Below are positions 55,841 to 64,000 of a stretch of DNA of 64,000 nucleotides, one piece after another (the first letter of the stretch is position 1; each line of letters starts with the position of its first letter). The translations under genes and the position numbers were made by a program. Source of the DNA: Streptomyces sp. SID12488 (GTDB lineage: Bacteria; Actinomycetota; Actinomycetes; Streptomycetales; Streptomycetaceae); contig NZ_JAAGLT010000010.1 in NCBI RefSeq assembly GCF_010548275.1, forward strand, positions 62,001 to 126,000, written 5' to 3'. Below the pieces are notes generated by a model. It saw nothing but the letters and a program-made list of their open reading frames with translations. It did not search any database and was not told the DNA's origin.

Positions 55841-57370
55841 ATGGCAGTGGACGAGGGCGTAGCCCCGGCGGGGGATACGAGTACGGGGACAAGTCCCGGC
55901 GACGACGGCACGGTTCACCGGCTGAAGCCGAACGCGATCGGCCTGCTCGGCGTGGTCTTCATGGCCGTCGCCACGGCCGCGCCGATCACCGCGATGACGG
56001 GCAACGTGCCCTTCATGGTGTCGTCCGGCAACGGCATCGGCGCCCCCGCGAGCTATCTGGTCGCAATGGTCGTCCTGGCAATCTTTGCCGTCGGCTTCAC
56101 GTCGATGGCGAAGCACATCACGTCCACCGGCGCCTTCTACGGCTTCATCTCCTACGGCCTCGGCCGCACGGTCGGCCTCGCCTCCGGGCTGCTCGCCACC
56201 TTCGCGTACGTCGTCTTCGAGCCCGCCCTGATCGGCATCTTCTCGACCTTCGCGACCGACACCATCAAGGACCAGACGGGCGCCCACGTCCCCTGGTGGG
56301 TGTTCGCGATCATCATGCTCGCGATCAACGCCACGGGTACGTGGTTCGGGGTGTCGGTGGCCGAAAAGCTGCTGATCGTCCTCCTCGGCACCGAGGTGAC
56401 GATCCTCGCCGCGATGGCGATCTCGGTCGCCCTGCACGGCGGCGGCCCGAACGGCTTCACCTTCGGCCCGGTCAACCCGGTCAACGCCTTCCAGGGCACC
56501 AGCGCCGGCCTCGGCCTCTTCTTCGCCTTCTGGTCGTGGGTCGGCTTCGAGTCGACGGCGATGTACGGCGAGGAGTCCCGCGACCCGAAGAAGATCATCC
56601 CCAAGGCGACGATGATCAGCGTGCTGGGCGTCGGCGTCTTCTACGTCTTCGTCTCCTGGATGGCGATCACGGGCAACGGCGAGGCGGCGGCGGTCAAGGC
56701 GGCCTCGTCCTCGAACCCCCTCGCCCTGTTCTTCAACCCCACCGAGCAGTACGTCGGCCACTGGGCGGTCGTCGTCATGCAGTGGCTGATGATCACTGGC
56801 TCGCTGGCCTGCGGCATGGCCTTCCACAACTGCGCCGCCCGCTACATGTACGCCCTGGGCCGCGAGGGCGTACTCCCCTCCCTCAAGCGGACCATCGGCC
56901 GCACCCACCCCGACCACGGCTCCCCGCACATCGCGGGCCTGGTCCAGACGGTCATCAGCGCCCTCCTGCTGCTCGCCTTCTGGGCCGCGCACAAGGACCC
57001 GTACACGGGTACGTACGTCCTGCTGGCCATCCTCGGCACGATGGCGATCCTCGTCGTCCAGGCCGTCTGCTCCTTCGCGGTCCTGGCCTACTTCCGCAAG
57101 AACCACCCGGAGAGCCGCCACTGGTTCCGGACGTTCACGGCCCCGCTCATCGGCGGCATCGCGATGCTCGCGGTGGTGGTGCTCCTGGTGTCCAACATGG
57201 GCGTCGCGGCGGGCACCGAGTCGGGCTCACTGGTCCTCAAGGCGACACCGTGGCTGGTCGCCCTGATCGCGGCAGGCGGCATCGGCTACGCCACCTACCT
57301 CAAGCACCGCGCCCCCGAGAGGTACGCACTGCTGGGGCGGACGGTGCTGGAGGAGACGAAGGAGCGTTAG
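55841..57370 (+). CDS. eat: APC-superfamily permease, probable ethanolamine importer
   Basis: 509 residues with about 12 membrane segments. LKPNAIGLLGVVFMAVATAA, PITAMTGNVPFMVSSGNGIG, GAFYGFISYGLGRTVGLASG, FFAFWSWVGFESTAMYGEES and MAFHNCAARYMYALGREGVL match amino acid/amine permeases. Being divergent from eutBC makes ethanolamine the likely substrate, but the same subfamily also carries other amines and amino acids. ATG 55841 is preceded by AGGAAGGGG. The 154-nt intergenic region is AT-rich around 55720-55755. Confidence 0.85.
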   Translation: MAVDEGVAPAGDTSTGTSPGDDGTVHRLKPNAIGLLGVVFMAVATAAPITAMTGNVPFMVSSGNGIGAPASYLVAMVVLAIFAVGFTSMAKHITSTGAFYGFISYGLGRTVGLASGLLATFAYVVFEPALIGIFSTFATDTIKDQTGAHVPWWVFAIIMLAINATGTWFGVSVAEKLLIVLLGTEVTILAAMAISVALHGGGPNGFTFGPVNPVNAFQGTSAGLGLFFAFWSWVGFESTAMYGEESRDPKKIIPKATMISVLGVGVFYVFVSWMAITGNGEAAAVKAASSSNPLALFFNPTEQYVGHWAVVVMQWLMITGSLACGMAFHNCAARYMYALGREGVLPSLKRTIGRTHPDHGSPHIAGLVQTVISALLLLAFWAAHKDPYTGTYVLLAILGTMAILVVQAVCSFAVLAYFRKNHPESRHWFRTFTAPLIGGIAMLAVVVLLVSNMGVAAGTESGSLVLKATPWLVALIAAGGIGYATYLKHRAPERYALLGRTVLEETKER

Positions 57371-60800: not shown

Positions 60801-61784
60801 ATGAAGCCATCCCACACCCAAGTCCTGGTCGAGGCTGCCTATGCAGCCGGAGCCGGTGACCGGCGCGAGGCCGCGATGACGGTGCTGAGGCTGCTTGAGC
60901 CGGTGACTCACCACGATGCCAGCGCCGTCCTGCTCTGGGACCCGATGGCCCGTGCGCACCGCGCGCTCGCTGTGGTCACCTACGGTGATGAAACGGTTGC
61001 CGCATTGGGTGACCGCTATGCGGCGAGTGCTGAGAACCGGCTGGTTTGGGAGCGGCGCCTGCCGATGCGGATCGACGACGTGCCGGGCGACTACCGACGG
61101 TCCCCGATGTACCGCGAGGTGCTCGGACCTGCCGGCTTCGCAGACGGCATGACCACCTGCCTCTTCTCGGACAGCGGTGTGTACACGGGCATGCTGCATT
61201 TCTCCGCGGCGGGGCGCGGCGCGTTCCGTGATGACGCGGCCGAACTCCTCAAGGCCCTGGTGCCCGCGCTGGCGCGGATGTGCGACGTGGCTCGACGGCA
61301 GACCACCGGATGCGCCATACCGCCGGGAGCGAACGCCACCCTGATCGACTACACCGGCCGTGCCTGGGCCGTCGAGTCGTGCGCCCCGGCGCTCGCGCCC
61401 ACGCAGCCCGAGTTCACCGGCTTTCTGCGTCGCTTCATGGCCTCGGCGCAGGTTGCCGCGACCGGGCTGCAGGCGTCGAGCGAAGGGTGGCTCGCGCTGC
61501 AGGTCCTGAAGGTGGCCGATCCGCTGGGACGGCCGGAACCGGCCGTACTGGTGCAGGAGCTTCCGACGGCCGCCCTGCCCTATTCACTCTCGCCGCGCGA
61601 GTACGACATCCTGAACGGGATGGCGGCGGGGTTCTCGAACCAGCAGTTGGCATCGCAGCGAGACGTCTCCCTGCGCACGGTGACCACGCACGTGGAGCGG
61701 ATCCTCCACAAGATGGAGCAGCCGTCGCGAGCCGGCGCGGTGGCGTCGGCGCTGCGCGACGGGATTCTCAGCTTGAACCGCTGA
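60801..61784 (+). CDS. LuxR-type regulator with N-terminal sensor domain
   Basis: 327 residues. The first 170 residues (LVEAAYAAGAGDRREAAMTV, LRLLEPVTHHDASAVLLWDP ... YTGMLHFSAAGRGAFRDDAA) look like a GAF/PAS-like ligand domain. The C-terminal LuxR HTH (about 255-320) contains SLSPREYDILNGMAAGFSNQ, VSLRTVTTHVERILHKMEQP. It lacks a receiver domain and phospho-acceptor. ATG 60801 has GAGAGGG upstream. It is directly followed on the same strand by the permease and amidase-like genes, so is the probable pathway regulator. Confidence 0.85.
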   Translation: MKPSHTQVLVEAAYAAGAGDRREAAMTVLRLLEPVTHHDASAVLLWDPMARAHRALAVVTYGDETVAALGDRYAASAENRLVWERRLPMRIDDVPGDYRRSPMYREVLGPAGFADGMTTCLFSDSGVYTGMLHFSAAGRGAFRDDAAELLKALVPALARMCDVARRQTTGCAIPPGANATLIDYTGRAWAVESCAPALAPTQPEFTGFLRRFMASAQVAATGLQASSEGWLALQVLKVADPLGRPEPAVLVQELPTAALPYSLSPREYDILNGMAAGFSNQQLASQRDVSLRTVTTHVERILHKMEQPSRAGAVASALRDGILSLNR

Positions 61785-61977
61785 CCGCCGCTGTCGGTAG
61801 GAATGCGTATTGAGGCGCAAGGTGGCCGAGCGCCATATTCGAGGTGAAGAAAGCCCGCGCTGTAGGCGGTCCTCACCCGCCGAGCCGGCTGTTGCCGACC
61901 CCGCGTCTTCCCCTGCTGTCGCCGCTCACGGCACCGACAGCCGACCGGGGCTCGTTCATCCCTCAGGAGGCCCGGCC

Positions 61978-63384
61978 ATGAACGTTCCAGAAGCTCCGCA
62001 AGCCATGTCCGAAAGACCCGGCGGCACAGATGACGACCGCGACCGGCTGCATGAACTCGGATACGAGCAGGAGCTCGCCCGCACGCTCAGCCTGGCCGAC
62101 GTCGTCATCTACGGCCTGATCTACATGGTGCCGCTCGCCCCCGTCGCGGTGTTCGGCGTCGTCTACAACATGTCCGCCGGCGCCGTCGCCTCGGTCTACG
62201 TGGTGGCCGCGATCGCGATGCTGTTCAGTGCCGTCAGCTACAAGGAGATGGCGGTCCGGTTCCCGGTCGCCGGCTCGGTCTACAGCTACGTACGGATGGG
62301 CAGCAACCGCTTCCTCGGGTTCGTCTCCGGGTGGGCCATCCTGCTCGACTACCTGCTGCTGCCGGCGCTGCTGTGCGTCTTCGCGGCCAGCGCGATGACC
62401 GGAGTGGTCTCCTGGGTGCCCGCCTGGATCTGGGTGGTGATCTTCGTCGCCGCGACCGCCCTGATCAACATCATGGGCATCAGTGTCACCGCGACGATGA
62501 ACAAGATCTTCCTCTACATCCAGCTGGTCGTGCTGGCCGTGTTCCTGGTCTGGGCAGCCGTGCTCATCCTCCAGGGCCGGGCCCATCTGTCGCTCAACCC
62601 GTTCGTTCCCGCCGACGGCGGCTCCTGGTCCCTGATCCTCGGTGCGGTTCCGGTCGCCGCCCTGAGTTACATCGGGTTCGACGCGATCTCGACACTGAAC
62701 GAGGAAGCCGAGGGCGGTGGCAAAACCGTCTCCAAGGCCACCATGATCGTCCTCTACCAGGTGACCGCGCTGTTCGTCGTGCAGGTCTTCGTGGCGGGCA
62801 TCCTCGTCCCGAGCGGGACGGAATTCGCCGACGGCGACCCGGTCAACAACGCCTTCTACAACGTGGTGGGCACGGCCATGGCGGGCTGGTTCAAGACTGT
62901 CCTCCTGCTGACCGCCGCCCTGATCGCGATCTTCGCCAACACCATCGCCTCCAACGCCACCTCCGCCCGCCTGGTCTTCAGCATGGCCCGCGACGGGCAG
63001 TTGCCGAAGTTCCTGTCACGGGTCAGCGACAAGCACCAGGTCCCCCTCAACGCGATGATCTTCATCGCAGTCCTGTCGGTGGGGGTCGGCATCCTCGGCG
63101 TGGAGCAGTCGGGACTGCTGATCACCCTGGTGACCTTCGGCGCGATCACCGCCTACGTCCTCCTCCACGTCAGCGTTTTCACCCACTTCGTCGTCCGAGG
63201 CCGCAGCCGCCGCTTCTTCGTCCACTGGGTCTCCCCGATCCTCGGCGCCGCGCTCCTCCTGGTCGCGCTGTGGAACGCGGACCCCAACGCCAAGATCGTC
63301 GGCTCGTGCTGGCTCGTCATCGGCCTCGGTGTGGCGGCGTACTTCAAGCTCACCGGCCGTGCGCTCGGTGGCTCCGACGCCTGA
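61978..63384 (+). CDS. APC family permease
   Basis: 468 residues, 12 membrane segments. SLADVVIYGLIYMVPLAPVA, FPVAGSVYSYVRMGSNRFLG, SGWAILLDYLLLPALL, LSYIGFDAISTLNEEAEGGG, NTIASNATSARLVFSMARDG and QLPKFLSRV are the standard APC pattern. The N-terminal 40 residues are hydrophilic. ATG 61978 follows CAGGAGGCC. It lies between a LuxR regulator and formamidase-like genes, so the natural guess is import of an amide, amine or amino-acid-like substrate used by the enzyme. Which one is not known. Confidence 0.9.
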   Translation: MNVPEAPQAMSERPGGTDDDRDRLHELGYEQELARTLSLADVVIYGLIYMVPLAPVAVFGVVYNMSAGAVASVYVVAAIAMLFSAVSYKEMAVRFPVAGSVYSYVRMGSNRFLGFVSGWAILLDYLLLPALLCVFAASAMTGVVSWVPAWIWVVIFVAATALINIMGISVTATMNKIFLYIQLVVLAVFLVWAAVLILQGRAHLSLNPFVPADGGSWSLILGAVPVAALSYIGFDAISTLNEEAEGGGKTVSKATMIVLYQVTALFVVQVFVAGILVPSGTEFADGDPVNNAFYNVVGTAMAGWFKTVLLLTAALIAIFANTIASNATSARLVFSMARDGQLPKFLSRVSDKHQVPLNAMIFIAVLSVGVGILGVEQSGLLITLVTFGAITAYVLLHVSVFTHFVVRGRSRRFFVHWVSPILGAALLLVALWNADPNAKIVGSCWLVIGLGVAAYFKLTGRALGGSDA

Positions 63385-63400
63385 CCGCACTCGCGCATAC

Positions 63401-63466
63401 CGCCGGGCAGCACAGGCATCGGCCTGAGACACCGTCACATCGAGGCGCCTCAGTCGCTGCCCGGCG
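63401..63466 (+). other. Structured leader candidate upstream of formamidase-like genes
   Basis: CGCCGGGCAGC (63401-63411) pairs with GCTGCCCGGCG (63456-63466), an exact 11-bp stem enclosing 44 nt that hold a smaller CTGAG/CTCAG pairing and a GAGGCGCCTC palindrome. It lies between the permease stop and the leader ORF. It could be a terminator, a processing site or a regulatory RNA. I do not recognise a known riboswitch. Confidence 0.5.
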
Positions 63467-63503
63467 CTCGCGAGCTCCTTCAGCACAAGAAAGGCCACCT
63501 TCC

Positions 63504-63566
63504 GTGAGCCCATCGTCCTTGTCCCGCCGCACCGCAACGGTGTCCCAGCAGCAGCAGGTGAACTGA
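63504..63566 (+). CDS. 20-codon leader ORF with four consecutive Gln codons
   Basis: GTG 63504, with GAAAGG upstream, encodes VSPSSLSRRTATVSQQQQVN and stops at TGA 63564-63566, sharing its last base with the ATG of the next gene (TGATG). The downstream ATG has only a weak AGGTG of its own, so its translation may depend on ribosomes finishing this ORF. QQQQ is written CAG CAG CAG CAG. It may be a translational-coupling leader or an attenuation peptide; it could also be chance. Confidence 0.4.
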   Translation: MSPSSLSRRTATVSQQQQVN

Positions 63567-63913
63567 TGCGCACCAGTGCAGACCGCTCCGCCGAGCTGCT
63601 CGAAGTGTTCCGTCTGCGCAGCGAAGAACGCCTGCGCAAGGAGTGCACCGACGAGGTCGCCGCCGCCCATGACGGGGCTCCGCTGGGACTGCAAAACGAC
63701 CGCACTCAACGTGTGCTGCGGGCGCTGCGCAGCCTCCCCGTCTCGGGCAAGCACATCATCTTCTCCGAAGGTCCCGACGGCCCCTGGCACGTGGCGCAGA
63801 TCGTCCTGGGCATGCCGGGCAACCTGCTCCTGACCCAGCAGTCCTTCGAGGACTACGAAGACGCCATGCGGTACATCTTCACGGCGCGCCGCGCGCAACT
63901 GCTGCAGAACTAG
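63566..63913 (+). CDS. N,N-dimethylformamidase small-subunit-like protein
   Basis: 115 residues, cytoplasmic. As I recall it, the small (alpha) subunit of bacterial dimethylformamidase has the order RRKE..D.....A....PFG....P..RV....R..P..GKYYI.SE....Y.IA.I, then an EEAM.A.F..R end. Here LRKECTDEV, PLGLQNDRTQRVLRALRSLP, SGKHIIFSEGPDGPWHVAQI, then YEDAMRYIFTARRAQ occur in the same order. The following gene starts like the large subunit. Known DMFases hydrolyse dimethylformamide to dimethylamine and formate. Whether the substrate here is the same is uncertain. Confidence 0.6.
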   Translation: MRTSADRSAELLEVFRLRSEERLRKECTDEVAAAHDGAPLGLQNDRTQRVLRALRSLPVSGKHIIFSEGPDGPWHVAQIVLGMPGNLLLTQQSFEDYEDAMRYIFTARRAQLLQN

Positions 63914-63929
63914 AAAGAAACGAGGAGCC

Positions 63930-64000
63930 CATGGCACTCTCGAGCGGCCGCACGACGACCCAGAACGTCTTCGGCTACACCGATCGCTTCTCCGCCCGCC
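63930..64000 (+). CDS. Probable N,N-dimethylformamidase large subunit, N-terminal fragment
   Basis: ATG 63930 with GAGGAG 3 nt upstream reads MALSSGRTTTQNVFGYTDRF, then SAR, to the window edge (23 codons). The GYTDRFSAR stretch resembles the beginning of DMFase large (beta) subunits, which start around a G-Y-x-D-R-x-S motif. It is 16 nt after the small-subunit stop. Only the first domain residues are visible, so the call rests mainly on the gene pair. Confidence 0.55.

What the first reader, a model, noticed from the sequence alone, without database searches (positions are those of the whole stretch)
60801..64000. LuxR-permease-formamidase-like operon at the window edge
Four plus-strand genes in a row: sensor-LuxR regulator, APC permease, a 115-residue protein whose motif order fits the small subunit of N,N-dimethylformamidase, and a following gene starting with GYTDRFSAR like the large subunit. 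Seen: gene order and motifs. Inference: a dedicated amide import and hydrolysis system. A DMFase-type enzyme linked to its own importer and regulator would be unusual; DMFases are described mostly from solvent-degrading bacteria, and the natural substrate in Streptomyces may be different.
Basis: partly seen in the sequence, partly recalled or inferred. Interest (0 to 1): 0.65.

Follow-up and report, generated by a model that had tools for sequence, protein, structure and literature searches.

The report
Dimethylformamidase-like amide hydrolase gene cluster
A Streptomyces gene cluster encodes a two-part iron enzyme that probably breaks an amide bond in a compound the cell imports; it belongs to a rarely seen, horizontally spread branch of the dimethylformamidase family whose neighbours point to amines rather than to the solvent as the natural food.

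Summary
The four genes are real. Read past the window edge, the fourth is a complete 771-aa DMFase-type large subunit (Pfam DMFA2_C, E 5e-86) with all three Fe(III) ligands and the catalytic His. The 115-aa gene is the small subunit: a profile of 14 cluster small subunits finds only the DMFase small subunit in the PDB. The protein is not a close DMFase. It belongs to a supported clade (60-97% identity; other relatives aligned at 46% or less) scattered over Streptomyces, Pseudomonas, Rhizobium, Arthrobacter, Mycobacteriales and Aeromicrobium. All 18 members examined keep the small subunit, 16 an orthologous APC permease, 11 a DmfR-like LuxR regulator. All 18 have Ala where 74 of 74 other relatives have Trp, and Glu at the substrate-gating Phe693 of DMFase. 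Ten of 18 carry an aldehyde dehydrogenase downstream; aminobutyraldehyde-type ones joined separately in Streptomyces, Pseudomonas and Rhizobium, an SSADH-like one in Mycobacteriales. Best reading: uptake and hydrolysis of an N-acylated omega-amino compound (polyamine/GABA type), not DMF; the substrate is inferred. The LuxR link is known (DmfR); the APC link is recurrent, and I found no report of it. Here a hairpin separates the dehydrogenase from the four genes, and 8 of 18 members lack one downstream.

The parts
60801..61784 (+). LuxR-type regulator, 327 aa, GAF-like N-terminal region plus GerE HTH; full-length relative of DmfR
   Evidence: GerE 4e-14; GAF_2 1e-3, below cut-off; 27% to pAMI2 DmfR, E 4e-22; 32% to the regulator beside a Rhodococcus DMFase-like pair
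61978..63384 (+). APC-superfamily permease, 468 aa (a TTG start at 61810 is possible; relatives start near 61978)
   Evidence: AA_permease_2 1e-35; orthologs at 49-96% in the 15 other clusters that have one, 16 of 18 in all; no other homolog at E<=1e-40 in this genome
63566..63913 (+). Small subunit of the DMFase-type amidohydrolase, 115 aa
   Evidence: 35% to DmfA1; profile vs 6lvb_B E 1.5e-5, only match; low-confidence model, top Foldseek match 6lvb_B, E 8e-4, but TM only 0.40 and rmsd 15.7
63931..64000 (+). Large subunit, first 70 bases inside the window; the gene runs on to 66246 in window numbering (L002:5931-8246), 771 aa
   Evidence: DMFA2_C 5e-86; 6lvb_A E 5e-144; Fe ligands; model vs 6lvb_A Z 54.6, 736 residues, 2.1 A

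Best explanation
The LuxR-APC-small-large unit is an inducible uptake-and-hydrolysis module. The regulator, a DmfR relative, is thought to sense the amide and switch on the unit. The APC permease brings the compound in. The large-small heteromer, with a Tyr2-Glu-bound Fe(III) as in dimethylformamidase, hydrolyses its amide bond. The substrate is most likely not DMF but an N-acyl derivative (acetyl or another short acyl) of an omega-amino compound of the putrescine / 4-aminobutanal / GABA type. The amine part then goes through an aldehyde dehydrogenase, here an aminobutyraldehyde-type one encoded just downstream, to GABA and the TCA cycle, and the acyl part to acyl-CoA. Shown by computation: gene content, subunit identity, catalytic residues, the separate clade, conserved linkage to the permease, separate recruitment of the dehydrogenases. 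Inferred: regulation, transport direction, substrate class and order of steps.
For: Enzyme: DMFA2_C 5e-86; 6lvb_A E 5e-144; AlphaFold model vs 6lvb_A Z 54.6, 736 residues, 2.1 A; Y408, Y448, E531 (Y399, Y440, E521 of DMFase) and H529 (H519) in 18 of 18 clade members and 74 of 74 other relatives aligned. Small subunit in 18 of 18, identified by profile. Clade set apart with 100/100 support. In 11 clade loci vs 53 other loci with enough flank, an APC ortholog lies within 6 kb on either side in 10 vs 0, and a full-length LuxR relative in 8 vs 0 (one control locus has a partial one; Fisher 7e-11 and 4e-8). Aldehyde dehydrogenase downstream on the same strand in 10 of 18: seven aminobutyraldehyde-type, three SSADH-like. 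In the ALDH tree the aminobutyraldehyde-type cluster copies are sister to a copy elsewhere in their own lineage (Streptomyces 100/99, Pseudomonas 100/98, Rhizobium 100/100). Mycobacterial member L161 also carries class-III aminotransferases (best of 42 solved matches for one is named putrescine aminotransferase, with others scoring nearly as high), an SSADH-like enzyme, alanine dehydrogenase and acetate-CoA ligase; acetyl-CoA-synthetase-like genes follow the ALDH in R. herbae and R. ruber. Clade-wide residues: E704 (18/18; 3/74 elsewhere) at Phe693 of DMFase, described as narrowing the pocket (PMC7686228); A561 (18/18) at a Trp kept in 74/74; H585 (18/18) where 68/74 have Trp.
Against: No substrate is shown. 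In this genome a perfect 18-nt inverted repeat follows the large-subunit stop; a hairpin with altered arms is there in 5 of 6 Streptomyces copies and may end the transcript before the ALDH. No ALDH was found downstream of the full copies in G107, G193 and S. europaeiscabiei, nor in five other members (Arthrobacter x2, Mycobacterium Root135, Antrihabitans, Aeromicrobium). Within 6 kb the ALDH contrast is modest (4/11 vs 4/53, p 0.02) and the acetate-CoA ligase contrast is nil (1/11 vs 3/53). The ALDH tree holds only copies from genomes with the module, so finer placement could change. Kinase plus phospho-lyase-like genes in two mycobacterial members would equally suit amino alcohols. The APC permease reaches no substrate-specific model; its best weak scores are to general and branched-chain amino acid and urea-system permeases.
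Confidence: 0.5

Rival explanations
1. It is an ordinary DMFase that hydrolyses DMF or small N-alkylformamides to formate and an alkylamine.
For: Same fold, two subunits, same Fe ligands and a DmfR-like regulator.
Against: Separate clade from DmfA2; Phe693 of DMFase is Glu in 18 of 18 and a Trp kept in 74 of 74 relatives is Ala in 18 of 18; aminobutyraldehyde- or SSADH-type neighbours do not fit methylamine or formate. A relative, AceAB, is reported to lack DMF activity (PMC11573777, passage). Note that position 693 is itself variable: Phe in only 15 of 74 relatives.
Confidence: 0.12
2. The substrate is an N-acyl amino alcohol (ethanolamine or aminopropanol type). The amine is phosphorylated and cleaved by a phospho-lyase to an aldehyde, which the dehydrogenase oxidises.
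For: M. sediminis and G953 carry an APH-family kinase and a class-III aminotransferase-fold protein like PRK06148/PRK06149 (below their cut-offs) beside the module; the permease scores weakly to an ethanolamine permease model; acetate-CoA-ligase-like genes in three members.
Against: I saw the kinase/lyase pair only in the two mycobacterial members; aminobutyraldehyde dehydrogenase recruitment in three other lineages points to amino aldehydes. In G953 the kinase is on the opposite strand. That such a pair makes aldehydes from phosphorylated amino alcohols is recalled, not tested.
Confidence: 0.13
3. The aldehyde dehydrogenase is not part of the pathway; the module is regulator-permease-amidase only and its substrate is some unrelated natural or man-made amide.
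For: Hairpin before the ALDH here; no ALDH found downstream in 8 of 18 members; ALDH-like stretches are common (31 to 62 first-look candidates per genome).
Against: Four ALDH acquisitions on the same strand downstream of the same small clade.
Confidence: 0.25

Closest known systems
N,N-dimethylformamidase DmfA1A2 of Paracoccus (PDB 6LVB; EC 3.5.1.56)
   Same: Fold over nearly the whole large subunit, two-subunit make-up, Fe ligands Y399/Y440/E521, H519, N547, LuxR-type regulator of the DmfR kind
   Different: About 36% identity; Glu at the Phe693 gate; Ala and His at Trp551 and Trp574; APC permease and aldehyde dehydrogenase neighbours, neither of which is annotated in the 12 kb around dmfA1A2 on pAMI2
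AceAB, acetamiprid amidase of Pigmentiphaga D-2
   Same: Two-subunit relative of DMFase reported to have no activity on DMF (PMC11573777, passage)
   Different: Its sequence was not compared here; its substrate is an insecticide
N-acetyl-(R)-beta-phenylalanine acylase (PDB 8HUY)
   Same: Same large-subunit fold (Z 50.2, 694 residues); the entry title says that the fold can hydrolyse an N-acetyl amide
   Different: More distant (335 vs 485 bits); keeps both Trp residues that this clade lost (alignment)
gamma-Aminobutyraldehyde dehydrogenases (PRK13473 / NF010000)
   Same: The downstream P0005 passes the subfamily cut-off, 702 vs 615 bits, and is 85% identical to a second copy elsewhere in the genome
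   Different: P0005 does not reach the TIGR03374 equivalog cut-off (559 vs 909 bits)

Membership tests
DMFA2_C / DMFase-like amidohydrolases (filed here) | DMFA2_C domain above gathering score | tested here: met
   289.9 bits vs 27
DMFA2_C / DMFase-like amidohydrolases (filed here) | Fe(III) ligands Tyr399, Tyr440, Glu521 and catalytic His519 | tested here: met
   Y408, Y448, E531, H529
DMFA2_C / DMFase-like amidohydrolases (filed here) | Separate small subunit of the DMFase kind encoded just upstream | tested here: met
   Profile of 14 cluster small subunits vs 6lvb_B E 1.5e-5, only PDB match; 17-bp gap to the large subunit
N,N-dimethylformamidase proper (EC 3.5.1.56; not filed) | Phe693 gate contributed by the neighbouring large subunit | tested here: not met
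   Glu704 in 18 of 18; gate role from PMC7686228. The loop is low-confidence in the model, and Phe is found in only 15 of 74 other relatives
N,N-dimethylformamidase proper (EC 3.5.1.56; not filed) | Hydrolysis of DMF to formate and dimethylamine | not testable with these tools
   Needs purified enzyme
N,N-dimethylformamidase proper (EC 3.5.1.56; not filed) | Regulation by a DmfR-type LuxR activator | tested here: inconclusive
   A full-length DmfR relative is adjacent; that it regulates the operon is not tested
N-acetyl-(R)-beta-phenylalanine acylase (not filed) | Nearest relationship to that enzyme rather than to DMFase | tested here: not met
   335 bits vs 485 bits for DMFase; Z 50.2 vs 54.6
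Aminobutyraldehyde dehydrogenase, NF010000 subfamily (downstream gene) | Score above curated cut-off | tested here: met
   702 vs 615 bits
Aminobutyraldehyde dehydrogenase, TIGR03374 equivalog (downstream gene; not filed) | Score above curated cut-off | tested here: not met
   558.7 vs 909.3 bits
APC-superfamily permease | AA_permease_2 above gathering score | tested here: met
   123.9 vs 27 bits
A substrate-specific APC permease equivalog (not filed) | Score above the cut-off of such a model | tested here: not met
   None of the 20 NCBIfam families listed reached its cut-off

The most novel reading that the evidence does not exclude
This clade is a mobile catabolic module for N-acylated polyamine-derived compounds: a ferric Tyr2-Glu amidohydrolase that cleaves N-acyl-4-aminobutanal, 4-acetamidobutyrate or N-acylputrescine, with its own APC importer. 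It would be a natural, non-solvent role for the DMFase fold and a metal chemistry not known to me in polyamine breakdown. Bacteria have attached an omega-aminoaldehyde dehydrogenase to it at least three separate times.
Probability: 0.25. Interest if true: 0.65.

Novelty: new variant of a known kind. Interest (0 to 1): 0.45.

Why it matters
DMF was introduced only in 1893 (PMC7686228), so what DMFase-type enzymes evolved to cut is open. A clade with a recurrent importer, changed residues near the catalytic ones and repeatedly recruited aminoaldehyde dehydrogenases turns that question into a short list of compounds to test. It also warns against reading the automatic label 'N,N-dimethylformamidase beta subunit family', seen on many plasmid relatives, as a substrate.

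Tried and rejected
Small protein against Pfam and NCBIfam: no match; alone against the PDB only E 0.16, resolved with a profile. Operator search: one short palindrome in the permease-small gap, whose bases vary among the five Streptomyces copies, so no claim. The idea that one dehydrogenase travelled with the module was rejected by the ALDH tree. The acetate-CoA ligase link was kept only as a hint, because within 6 kb it is no commoner than in the control loci; in R. herbae it lies outside that limit. The control loci are largely MAGs from other groups, so the neighbourhood contrast is partly taxonomic. One search used 9 of 53 for small subunits in the control loci; the union is 7 of 53, since two loci matched both queries, and a diverged small subunit could be missed there. 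Of the 80 loci, 16 had too little flank and were left out of the neighbourhood count; one relative (L101) has a shortened frame. Two near-identical R. leguminosarum plasmid copies (L035, L036) were not counted among the 18. Sampling is thin. At E<=1e-180 the clade was found in 3 of 348 genomes of the genus of Pseudomonas SJZ074, 1 of 295 of the family of Arthrobacter MYb23, 4 of 351 of the family of M. sediminis, 1 of 346 of the family and 1 of 26 of the genus of R. herbae; each of these draws included one or more genomes that I already knew, so only three of the finds were new. Foldseek rows beyond the DMFase and acylase entries match single domains only and were not used.
Full report
Observation. 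The window is part of a longer contig, and the fourth gene, of which only 70 bases lie in the window, is complete beyond it: 771 aa, window-equivalent 63931-66246. A fifth co-directional gene, an aldehyde dehydrogenase, starts 243 or 261 bp further on, depending on the start codon.

Identity of the enzyme. The large subunit carries DMFA2_C (289.9 bits against a cut-off of 27) and is closest among solved structures to Paracoccus DMFase (485 bits), then to N-acetyl-(R)-beta-phenylalanine acylase (335 bits). An AlphaFold model (mean pLDDT 86) superposes on 6lvb_A over 736 residues at 2.1 A, Z 54.6. The DMFase iron ligands Y399, Y440, E521 and catalytic H519, as given in PMC7686228 (two of three parts of the text read), correspond to Y408, Y448, E531 and H529. 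They are present in 18 of 18 clade members and 74 of 74 other relatives aligned. The small protein matched nothing in Pfam or NCBIfam and 6lvb_B only at E 0.16 alone. A profile of 14 cluster small subunits, itself included, finds 6lvb_B as its only PDB match at E 1.5e-5. A low-confidence model (pLDDT 72) also has 6lvb_B as top Foldseek match (E 8e-4, but TM 0.40 and rmsd 15.7).

A separate clade. Eleven are 60-97% identical to the query; the others that I aligned are at 46% or less. In a maximum-likelihood tree of 38 proteins these 18 are split from the rest with 100/100 support; within them Actinomycetota and Pseudomonadota are mixed (Rhizobium next to Arthrobacter, 88/85), so transfer between phyla is likely. 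The clade is rare: of 199 genomes of the genus searched, this one included, only this one and two others carry a copy at 96% or more; three more have a distant relative at 41-48%, one of them a fragment. The named Streptomyces carriers found are S. europaeiscabiei and S. acidiscabies.

What travels with it. All 18 have the small subunit just upstream. Sixteen have an ortholog of the APC permease; the two Rhizobium copies have a peptide-type ABC transporter (SBP_bac_5) instead. Eleven have a full-length relative of the LuxR regulator; the Rhizobium and Pseudomonas copies have AraC-type regulators instead, and none was found for M. sediminis and G953. Within 6 kb on either side, 10 of 11 clade loci against 0 of 53 other DMFase-like loci carry the permease, and 8 of 11 against 0 of 53 the full-length regulator (Fisher 7e-11 and 4e-8). 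This genome has no second homolog of the permease at E<=1e-40. The LuxR link is older than this clade: DmfR of pAMI2 is 27% identical over 330 aa and is reported to activate dmfA1A2 (PMC4543880, passage).

Substrate clues. Ten of 18 members have an aldehyde dehydrogenase downstream on the same strand: aminobutyraldehyde-type in this genome, S. acidiscabies, two Rhizobium and three Pseudomonas copies; succinate-semialdehyde-like in M. sediminis, R. ruber and G953, where no model reached its cut-off for the two scanned. In G193 an ALDH lies beside a truncated second large-subunit copy, some 17 kb from the full module. In the ALDH tree the aminobutyraldehyde-type cluster genes group with a copy elsewhere in their own lineage: Streptomyces 100/99, Pseudomonas 100/98, Rhizobium 100/100 (only genomes with the module were sampled). 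So the same kind of dehydrogenase was probably added at least three separate times, and another kind once. G953 carries, beside the module, class-III aminotransferases, an SSADH-like enzyme, alanine dehydrogenase (above its cut-off) and an acetate-CoA ligase cut by the end of the stretch; acetyl-CoA-synthetase-like genes follow the ALDH in R. herbae and R. ruber. Three positions distinguish the clade in the catalytic domain: E704 in 18 of 18 where DMFase has Phe693, a residue of the neighbouring subunit that narrows the pocket (PMC7686228), although that position is variable elsewhere (Phe in 15, Glu in 3 of 74); A561 in 18 of 18 where 74 of 74 other relatives, and the beta-Phe acylase, have Trp; and H585 in 18 of 18 where 68 of 74 have Trp. 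The two other DMFA2_C proteins of this genome also keep the Trp at 561. I infer a roomier, more acidic site suited to a substrate with an amino group; that A561 lines the pocket rests on its nearness in sequence to N557 (N547 of DMFase) only, and the model does not show the gate loop reliably (residues 701-705 under pLDDT 50).

Against. A perfect 18-nt inverted repeat follows the large-subunit stop here; a like hairpin with altered arms is present in 5 of 6 Streptomyces copies and missing in S. acidiscabies. It may end the transcript, leaving the dehydrogenase under other control. In eight of 18 members I found no ALDH downstream. Two mycobacterial members carry a kinase and a phospho-lyase-like gene that would suit amino alcohols.

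Literature. In the open-access library no paper holds both 'dimethylformamidase' and 'putrescine'. One holds it with 'aldehyde dehydrogenase', a bibliometric review of thermostable enzymes seen only as a listing. One holds it with 'permease'; its permease passages are about trimethylamine N-oxide and the reference list, not a DMFase neighbour. Most subscription papers are not held, Dziewit 2010 among them, so a published description cannot be excluded.

Verdict. It is a new variant of a known kind: a DMFase-type amidohydrolase clade with a recurrent APC importer and a probable amine-linked substrate.

Noticed in passing
G000 contig 55 (L033:8126-11728, minus strand) and contig 108 (L032:12997-14613, minus strand): Two further DMFA2_C proteins in this genome, one about 1200 aa with a signal-like start; by alignment the Fe-ligand positions Y, Y, E and the His are kept in both. 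Function unknown.
   Followed up: partly
G193: L027 and L028 (about 17 kb apart): A second, truncated large-subunit copy (366 residues, 98% identical to the query) with the dehydrogenase, in reverse orientation to the full module; looks like a local duplication with inversion.
   Followed up: no
window 55841-57370: A second APC permease, 509 aa, only about 23% identical to the one in the finding.
   Followed up: no
L034 / L162 (Rhizobium ruizarguesonis plasmid pRL12): Beyond the Rhizobium module, on the other strand, lie glutathione-linked formaldehyde oxidation genes and a P450 with ferredoxin and reductase; whether they belong to the same pathway is unknown.
   Followed up: no
L002:8263-8298 (window-equivalent 66263-66298): Hairpin after the large-subunit stop, kept with altered arms in 5 of 6 Streptomyces copies; terminator-like.
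   Followed up: partly
L054:6477-7640: In Arthrobacter bambusae a 387-aa protein that aligns to the large subunit at 28% over 404 columns lies between regulator and permease.
   Followed up: no
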